Assembly (NCBI RefSeq): GCF_001904725.1
Contig: NZ_MRCE01000013.1
Coordinates: 124,001 to 188,000 of the forward strand
Source of the DNA: Phormidium ambiguum IAM M-71
GTDB lineage: Bacteria; Cyanobacteriota; Cyanobacteriia; Cyanobacteriales; Aerosakkonemataceae
DNA: 64,000 nucleotides
Direction of reading: 5' to 3'
Made by a program: the position numbers and the translations under genes. Below the pieces are notes generated by a model that searched no databases, was not told where the DNA came from, and saw only the letters and a list, made by a program, of their open reading frames with translations. Below are positions 22,858 through 24,294 of this stretch, in pieces. How positions within the stretch are numbered: position 1 is the stretch's first letter; every line of letters starts with the position of its first letter.

Positions 22858-22908
22858 TTGAGTCGAGTTTGGTAAGTAATTATTCCCTATTCTCGACTCA
22901 AGTTTTTT
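22858..22908 (+). terminator. Rho-independent terminator after the GT4 pair
   Basis: TTGAGTCGAG (22858-22867) pairs with CTCGACTCAA (22892-22901), a 10-bp stem with a 24-base loop, followed by GTTTTTT. It starts 15 bases after the glycosyltransferase stop. The rest of the 335-base gap up to 23178 shows no gene. Confidence 0.8.
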
Positions 22909-23178: not shown

Positions 23179-24294
23179 ATGCCAGCCTCAGCGCAATCTT
23201 CACTGCAAAAGGTGTTTGATTACACCATGCTTGATGCAGAAACCAGTTTATTTATTCAAAAACAAACTGGGGAAATCCGAGCGCTCATGAAGCGCACTGC
23301 ACAAGATATCATTGAAATCGGACAGAAGTTGATATTAGTTAAAGAGAAACTTGCTCACGGGAGATTCCTAGATTGGATAGCAGCTGAATTTGAATGGAGT
23401 TATCCAACTGCGGCGAGATTCATGCAGGTAGCGAATTCATTTAGCAAAACTTATCAAATTGATAAGTTTGCGGCTTCTGCCTTATATGTTCTAGCTGCAC
23501 CTTCAACACCAGCAAGTGCTCGTGCGGAAGCGATCGCTCGTGCGGAAGCAGGAGAACCAATCACATATACGATCGCCAAAGAAATTAGGCAAAAACATAG
23601 TTCACCTGGCGCAAAACCCAAAGCAGAATCAGTGCCGCCACTAAAATCAGTTCCGGCTCTATTACCTGCTAATGAATCACGTCCTAAAGTCGAAATTGTT
23701 GCCACTCGTCCAGCCAAAGAAATAGTCAAAGAAAAAGAAGTTGTTTCCATCCAAAAGAAAGAAGTTGAATTACCAGAAATTAAACGAGTAATTCCCCTTT
23801 CTGTAACCACAACATCATCAACTACAACACCATCAATACAAACTATTTCTCAACCATCTCCAATAGTTAGCAAACGCGAGCAAGCAGGAATATGGTGGCA
23901 GTTAGGTAGACGACATTTACTATATGGTGGCGATCCTAATTCCGCAGAGTTTATGCAGAAAGTACCCCATCATGCGGGATTATTATTAGGATTTCCTGCT
24001 GGTAAAGATTGGTATTCAAATATCCCCGCCGAAAATCGGATTATTGTCACCAAAAATTTACCCCAATCTAAAGATATTCGACTTTTTGAAGACACTTTAG
24101 AGTCAATTATTTTGTTATACACTGAATTGGGGGAAACCGTAATTGTTTGTTACCTACCCTATCCAGAAATTCTTTCCACAATTAATCGCTTAGATCGGCT
24201 AGCGATCTTTGCAGAACCAGATCCCAAACGAGTAAATGAAATTATTTCTGATTGGAAAAGAGGAGGACTGAAAGCGGAGAAAATTGAGTTCTAA
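23179..24294 (+). CDS. DUF3102 protein with a C-terminal region resembling a catalytically dead DNA methyltransferase
   Basis: This 371-residue protein has an N-terminal DUF3102 domain (about residues 25-135), helical with KLILVKEKLAHGRFLDWI and EWSYPTAARFMQVA. DUF3102 is seen in phage- and plasmid-type DNA-associated proteins. A Pro/Ser/Thr linker follows (about 140-230). The last part (235-371) contains WWQLGRRHLLYGGDP and AEPDPKRVNEIISDW, which closely resemble the LGxHRLLCGD entry motif and the E-xDPKxVDxIIxRW end motif of ParB-linked DNA methylases. The catalytic DPPY and the FxGxG motif are absent (GFPAGKDW and VCYLPYPE occur at about those places). A DNA-binding or regulatory role is inferred; the family is otherwise uncharacterised. 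Confidence 0.8.
   Translation: MPASAQSSLQKVFDYTMLDAETSLFIQKQTGEIRALMKRTAQDIIEIGQKLILVKEKLAHGRFLDWIAAEFEWSYPTAARFMQVANSFSKTYQIDKFAASALYVLAAPSTPASARAEAIARAEAGEPITYTIAKEIRQKHSSPGAKPKAESVPPLKSVPALLPANESRPKVEIVATRPAKEIVKEKEVVSIQKKEVELPEIKRVIPLSVTTTSSTTTPSIQTISQPSPIVSKREQAGIWWQLGRRHLLYGGDPNSAEFMQKVPHHAGLLLGFPAGKDWYSNIPAENRIIVTKNLPQSKDIRLFEDTLESIILLYTELGETVIVCYLPYPEILSTINRLDRLAIFAEPDPKRVNEIISDWKRGGLKAEKIEF

What the first reader, a model, noticed from the sequence alone, without database searches (positions are those of the whole stretch)
23179..24294. DUF3102 protein carrying a relic of a DNA methyltransferase without the catalytic motif
Seen: residues 239-253 (WWQLGRRHLLYGGDP) and 342-359 (AIFAEPDPKRVNEIISDW) match in order and spacing the entry motif (LGxHxLLCGD) and the terminal motif (GxExDPxxVxxIIxRW) of ParB-linked DNA methylases. 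The segments where DPPY and FxGSGT should be read GFPAGKDW and VCYLPYPE. Inference: a phage/plasmid methylase module was domesticated, lost catalysis and was joined to DUF3102, giving a DNA-binding or regulatory protein. A complete gene with intact frame argues for a retained function.
Basis: partly seen in the sequence, partly recalled or inferred. Interest (0 to 1): 0.62.

Follow-up and report, generated by a model that had tools for sequence, protein, structure and literature searches.

The report
Dead DNA methylase domain in DNA-binding protein
This cyanobacterial gene fuses a DUF3102 domain (a probable DNA-binding module) to a shrunken DNA-methylating enzyme that has lost its active site, and it belongs to a widespread, evolutionarily maintained family that probably works as gene or plasmid regulators rather than as enzymes.

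Summary
The 371-aa ORF at 23179-24294 is DUF3102 (Pfam E=4e-9) plus linker plus a 135-aa C-terminal domain that no public library recognises. A profile of that domain from cyanobacterial relatives finds intact ParB-linked beta-class DNA methyltransferases: 64 of 78 viral-contig enzymes at E<1e-3, best 3.5e-20, none when reversed; hhalign gives 97.9%. DPPY reads LLGFPA, FxGSGT reads CYLPYP, and the interval between them has shrunk from 127-170 residues to 52 (94 in a semi-degenerate sister group). All 45 DUF3102 members surveyed lack both motifs. In the tree, all DPPY-less domains form one clade (UFBoot 100) beside an intact IMG/VR ParB-methylase, so catalysis was probably lost once, before DUF3102 replaced ParB. 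The C-domain is under purifying selection (dN/dS 0.07; 0-0.20 in five other pairs; linker 0.47). Relatives carry DUF3102, ParB_N or receiver+DUF3102 fronts. Best explanation: a retired methylase kept as a dimerisation or DNA-contact scaffold of a DNA-binding regulator. Homology, motif loss and selection are shown. DNA binding and regulation are inferred. The AlphaFold model of the C-domain was too weak (pLDDT 54) to test the fold.

The parts
23179..24294 (+). Complete gene, 371 aa plus stop: DUF3102 + variable linker + inactive mini-methyltransferase domain
   Evidence: orthologue 88% identical in the same genus with flanking genes conserved
23215..23604 (+). N-terminal all-helical domain (residues 13-142) containing Pfam DUF3102 (residues 40-95, nt 23296-23463)
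   Evidence: Pfam E 3.8e-9, 37.3 bits against cut-off 24.4; AlphaFold mean pLDDT 82, all helices; dN/dS 0.024 over residues 1-143
23389..23442 (+). Helix-turn-helix-like segment FEWSYPTAARFMQVANSF (residues 71-88), candidate DNA-recognition element
   Evidence: sequence; weak, non-significant alignment with the HTH of ParB-linked relatives and weak ParB/Noc fold matches
23608..23886 (+). Linker, residues 144-236, poorly conserved
   Evidence: dN/dS 0.47 against 0.02 and 0.07 for the two flanking domains
23887..24291 (+). C-terminal inactive mini-methyltransferase domain, residues 237-371
   Evidence: dN/dS 0.074 (bootstrap 0.03-0.14)
23893..23937 (+). Entry motif WWQLGRRHLLYGGDP, equivalent to WRLGRHLLFCGDT of intact ParB-linked methylases
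23980..24003 (+). Place of catalytic motif IV (DPPY): reads LLLGFPAG
   Evidence: L129 reads FAFADPPY in the same place
24031..24054 (+). ENRIIVTK, equivalent to the strand after motif IV (KAQVVAVTPG in L129); about 70 residues of the intact enzyme are missing just after it
   Evidence: alignment with L129; interval counts
24130..24171 (+). Place of SAM-binding motif I (GDSVIDPFLGSGTT): reads GETVIVCYLPYPEI
24202..24255 (+). Terminal motif AIFAEPDPKRVNEIISDW, equivalent to CYGGEINPEFCAEIIARW

Best explanation
The gene encodes a pseudo-methyltransferase regulator. Its C-terminal domain descends from a ParB-linked beta-class DNA methyltransferase of mobile elements. It lost the catalytic DPPY motif, the SAM-binding FxGxG motif and the target-recognition region, and its original ParB front was replaced by DUF3102. 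Proposed mechanism: the helical DUF3102 domain, with its helix-turn-helix-like segment, recognises DNA, and the compact remnant acts without SAM as a dimerisation or auxiliary DNA-contact scaffold. The protein would control nearby genes (chromosomal copies) or plasmid functions (plasmid copies). Relatives with a receiver domain in front suggest the module can be placed under two-component-like control. Shown: homology, loss of motifs, single origin, purifying selection, domain combinations. Inferred: DNA binding, dimerisation, regulation. Likelihoods: inactive methylase descendant 0.97; retained function 0.95; DNA-binding regulator 0.6.
For: Homology: with reversed controls. Motif loss in all 45 DUF3102 members surveyed. 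Intermediates: ParB_N proteins that lack DPPY but several of which keep APF(M/L/I)GHGE, interval 94. Tree: all DPPY-less domains form one clade at UFBoot 100 with intact L129/L130 as sister at 100. Selection: C-domain dN/dS 0.074 in the window pair and 0-0.20 in five other pairs. DNA-related company: ParB-like fronts in Acaryochloris plasmid members (Pfam ParB_N E 0.002, below its cut-off); receiver+DUF3102 fronts with invariant DD, D and K residues and PDB receiver matches at E 0.002; copies near plasmid genes.
Against: No direct evidence of DNA binding. DUF3102 has no significant fold match in the PDB; the ParB/Noc matches are weak (E 2-9) and hhalign to a ParB helix-turn-helix is only 3%. 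The C-domain model is of low confidence. Neighbouring genes differ between lineages and do not point to one pathway. The window copy sits between glycosyltransferase genes and a histidine kinase with no obvious target.
Confidence: 0.6

Rival explanations
1. The protein is mainly a plasmid or chromosome maintenance factor (partition, incompatibility, copy control or nucleoid binding) rather than a transcription regulator.
For: Ancestral and some present fronts are ParB-like; several T1 relatives lie on plasmid-sized contigs near a CyRepA-like gene with DUF3987 and an HTH_36 gene; plasmid hits in Acaryochloris, Gloeothece and Chondrocystis.
Against: The window copy and the T2 relatives are chromosomal next to metabolic genes and are kept there. 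No parA partner was noticed. The window copy has no ParB_N.
Confidence: 0.2
2. The remnant is a ligand sensor that still binds SAM, SAH or a nucleotide and switches the DUF3102 domain.
For: The acidic residues after motif I (AEPD) are retained in the window subgroup; C-domain constraint is strong.
Against: The glycine-rich motif I (FxGxG) is gone in every DUF3102 member, and the acidic E is replaced in the T2 subgroup (GDP).
Confidence: 0.12
3. Non-functional relic drifting toward loss.
For: Catalytic motifs are gone; a few copies are broken (stops in G526; split frames in L022).
Against: dN/dS of the C-domain is 0.074 (0.03-0.14) while the linker is 0.47; constraint in five other pairs; intact frames in dozens of genomes.
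Confidence: 0.04
4. A minimal but active methyltransferase using altered motifs.
For: Overall motif order is preserved.
Against: No [DNS]PP[YFW] in any of 45 DUF3102 members, no glycine-rich loop, about 70 residues of the target-recognition region missing.
Confidence: 0.02
5. The similarity to methyltransferases is chance.
For: No hit in generic libraries with the single protein.
Against: Profile hits to 64 of 78 intact enzymes, none reversed; hhalign 97.9% against 0.3% reversed; intermediates.
Confidence: 0.01

Closest known systems
ParB-linked DNA methylases of phages and mobile elements (PF02195 + PF01555; PHROG 498; Bce_0392-type ParB-methylase mentioned in PMC5512222)
   Same: C-domain homologous over both ends; same motif order; intact member L129 is sister to the whole inactive clade
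   Different: No DPPY, no FxGxG, about 70 residues missing, and DUF3102 instead of ParB_N
DUF3102 family (PF11300), found in phages, plasmids and cyanobacteria, function unknown
   Same: N-terminal domain passes the Pfam cut-off
   Different: The phage DUF3102 proteins fetched have other C-termini; the inactive methylase tail was seen only in cyanobacterial sequences here
Semi-degenerate cyanobacterial ParB_N proteins (L071-L086 group)
   Same: Same inactive clade; DPPY lost
   Different: Keep ParB_N and, in several members, a GxG-like motif I; interval 94 residues; at least one still scores as a type II MTase in PADLOC
METTL14 (inactive partner of METTL3), from own knowledge
   Same: Works-like analogy: a methyltransferase fold of the beta-class type kept as nucleic-acid-binding scaffold after loss of catalysis
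   Different: Not homologous in architecture; eukaryotic RNA enzyme subunit; no evidence here that the cyanobacterial protein pairs with an active enzyme

Membership tests
Beta-class N6/N4 DNA methyltransferase (PF01555) | Sequence homology to the family | tested here: met
   Profile and hhalign matches; the single protein gives no Pfam hit
Beta-class N6/N4 DNA methyltransferase (PF01555) | Catalytic motif IV DPPY/NPPY/SPPW | tested here: not met
   Reads LLGFPA; absent in all 45 DUF3102 members
Beta-class N6/N4 DNA methyltransferase (PF01555) | SAM-binding motif I FxGxG | tested here: not met
   Reads VCYLPYPE
Beta-class N6/N4 DNA methyltransferase (PF01555) | Target-recognition region between motifs IV and I | tested here: not met
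   Interval 52 residues against 127-170
Beta-class N6/N4 DNA methyltransferase (PF01555) | Rossmann-like methyltransferase fold | tested here: inconclusive
   AlphaFold pLDDT 54, pTM 0.41; no significant Foldseek match
DUF3102 (PF11300) | Domain match above curated cut-off | tested here: met
   37.3 bits against 24.4
ParB-linked methylase | ParB_N domain at the N-terminus | tested here: not met
   Pfam finds no ParB_N in the window protein, only DUF3102 above its cut-off
DNA-binding transcription regulator | Sequence-specific DNA binding | not testable with these tools
   Needs EMSA, DAP-seq or ChIP-seq
DNA-binding transcription regulator | Helix-turn-helix related to a known DNA-binding fold | tested here: inconclusive
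   Helical model pLDDT 82; ParB/Noc among weak Foldseek matches (E 2-9); hhalign to ParB HTH 3%
Response regulator | Receiver domain | tested here: not met
   Absent in the window protein; present only in relatives L021, L023, L025, L087, L128

The most novel reading that the evidence does not exclude
Cyanobacteria turned a mobile-element DNA methylase, by one loss of catalysis, into a portable non-enzymatic module that is combined with DUF3102, ParB-like and receiver+DUF3102 fronts, forming an unrecognised class of regulators of lipid/specialised-metabolite neighbourhoods and of plasmids.
Probability: 0.4. Interest if true: 0.72.

Novelty: new variant of a known kind. Interest (0 to 1): 0.56.

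Why it matters
It assigns an origin to an unannotated domain found in dozens of cyanobacterial genomes and gives DUF3102 (three passing mentions in the papers searched) a testable role. It is a traceable bacterial case of an enzyme becoming a non-enzymatic module, with intact, half-degenerate and fully degenerate stages still present. It also warns that half-degenerate members can be called as type II methyltransferases by defence-system pipelines.

Tried and rejected
Generic Pfam, NCBIfam, PHROGs and PDB sequence searches with the C-domain gave nothing. Phage records gave no match to the window protein. AlphaFold of the C-domain was limited to sequences the tool permits, so its alignment was shallow and mixed in C-halves of intact enzymes; the model is too weak to use, and its Foldseek matches (ketoreductases and others, none significant) are disregarded. 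Adding N-terminal fragments of intact enzymes misaligned the set. Homology of DUF3102 to the ParB helix-turn-helix is suggestive in register but not significant. I first read the T2 neighbours as a siderophore cluster (note); Pfam of three representatives gave thioesterase, weak glyoxalase-like and sucrase/ferredoxin-like hits, so that reading was dropped. An inverted repeat at 22858-22901 upstream was seen but not shown to be an operator.

Full report
The gene. The window holds a complete 371-aa ORF at 23179-24294 (+), between two glycosyltransferase genes and a PAS-type histidine kinase gene. In Phormidium sp. LEGE 05292 (same genus; L034, which carries the same protein as L002 of genome G006) the protein is 88% identical and the flanking DNA from about 17.3 to 29.8 kb is collinear. 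The gene is therefore an old chromosomal resident, not part of a prophage.

What the protein contains. The only Pfam match above its cut-off is DUF3102 (residues 40-95, E 3.8e-9). The last 135 residues match nothing in Pfam, NCBIfam or PHROGs and nothing significant among PDB sequences. Whole-genome searches found the full arrangement (DUF3102, variable linker, C-domain) in many cyanobacteria, often in several copies: 57 of 293 genomes of the order match the whole protein at E<=1e-4 (some by DUF3102 only), and 38 of 390 genomes of the class match the C-domain profile A1.

Homology to methyltransferases. The A1 profile finds ParB_N proteins with a semi-degenerate methylase (E 1e-16 to 1e-25) and one protein with intact motifs, L089. 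It then finds an IMG/VR ParB_N protein with an intact enzyme, L129/L130 (E 4e-20 to 5e-20). L129 reads GDWWRLGRHLLFCGDTSSQEFIERMPSVPFAFADPPYNAG...DSVIDPFLGSGTTLLVAESMGRTCYGGEINPEFCAEIIARW. hhalign of A1 against four intact enzymes (A2) gives 97.9%, E 4.7e-13; the reversed control gives 0.3%. BLASTP of the window domain against L129 aligns both ends at 4e-8 and 2e-5. Of 78 intact ParB-linked viral methylases, 64 match A1 at E<1e-3 and none do when reversed.

Loss of activity. At the DPPY position the window reads LLGFPA; at the FxGSGT position it reads CYLPYP. None of 45 DUF3102 members has [DNS]PP[YFW] or an FxGxG motif. Several relatives keep the two prolines (AFPP), as expected for decay from ADPPY. 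The motif IV to motif I interval is 127-170 residues in intact enzymes, 94 in the semi-degenerate group where it could be measured, and 52 here. About 70 residues after the strand equivalent to VVAVTPG are missing (alignment).

History. In an IQ-TREE analysis on the 135 profile columns, all DPPY-less domains (DUF3102-type, ParB-type mini and semi-degenerate) form one clade with UFBoot 100, and L129/L130 is its sister with 100. The mini domains form a clade (100) next to the semi-degenerate ParB_N group, with the ParB-fronted minis nested among DUF3102 ones. The simplest reading is one loss of catalysis in a ParB-linked ancestor, then exchange of the front for DUF3102, then at least one return to a ParB-like front. 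Limits: the alignment was fitted to the A1 profile, the columns are few, the root was placed on one intact enzyme, and only intact enzymes detectable by the profile could enter.

Selection. Between the window gene and its congener, dN/dS is 0.024 for the N-domain, 0.47 for the linker and 0.074 for the C-domain (bootstrap 0.03-0.14). In five further pairs of relatives where the C-domain could be delimited it is 0 to 0.20. The remnant is maintained.

What it may do. Domain partners of the same C-domain include DUF3102, ParB-like fronts (Acaryochloris plasmids) and a receiver-like domain plus DUF3102 (invariant D17, D18, D66, K130 in alignment A9, and PDB receiver matches at E 0.002). The semi-degenerate group often lies beside DevB-like and DevC-like exporter genes and a ketosynthase gene. 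One T2 group lies beside thioesterase, sucrase/ferredoxin-like and transporter genes. T1 copies on plasmid-sized contigs lie near a CyRepA-like (DUF3987) gene and an HTH_36 gene (exporter, ketosynthase and CyRepA names partly from own reading of the sequences). A published note places a DUF3102 gene beside DevB and DevC in a tolyporphin cluster (PMC8401325). The common denominator is a DNA-binding type of front and linkage to a local gene set or plasmid, which favours a regulator. This step is inference.

Structure. DUF3102 (residues 1-153) is predicted as an all-helical domain, pLDDT 82. Its PDB matches are not significant, although ParB, Spo0J and Noc DNA-binding chains recur among the weak ones.

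Verdict. An inactive, shrunken ParB-linked methylase fused to DUF3102, kept by selection in a widespread cyanobacterial family. Homology, motif loss and selection are firm; the regulatory mechanism is the best inference at about 0.6. In the papers searched here DUF3102 had only three passing mentions and I found no description of this family, within the limits of that library.

Noticed in passing
L075-L086, e.g. L075:767-2137 (+): ParB_N proteins with a half-degenerate methylase (DPPY lost, APFMGHGE kept in several) sit beside DevB-like, DevC-like and ketosynthase genes in several cyanobacteria; L075 still scores as a type II MTase in PADLOC (E 9e-21), a likely false call.
   Followed up: partly
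L021, L023, L025, L087, L128: Receiver-like domain fused in front of DUF3102 + inactive methylase, with the acidic pair, the aspartate and the lysine conserved.
   Followed up: partly
L253-L272: DUF3102 mini-methylase genes keep recurring neighbours: thioesterase (12 of 20 loci), weak glyoxalase-like protein (10), sucrase/ferredoxin-like protein (9), an ABC-transporter-like protein (9).
   Followed up: partly
L250:1956-3467 (+): Viral-contig DUF3102 protein whose C-terminus carries an NPPF motif like an unrelated DNA methyltransferase; Pfam names only DUF3102.
   Followed up: no
L044:1474-2301 (-): In the window's own genome, a 275-aa protein with an N-terminus that looks RusA-like followed by a DUF3102-like match just at the Pfam cut-off (24.4 bits).
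   Followed up: no
L070; L022: Broken copies of the family exist (stop codons in G526; split frames in G238).
   Followed up: no
window 22858-22901: Perfect 10-nt inverted repeat (TTGAGTCGAG/CTCGACTCAA) between the upstream glycosyltransferase gene and this gene; a similar repeat lies upstream in L034 (5751-5792). Terminator or operator not resolved.
   Followed up: no
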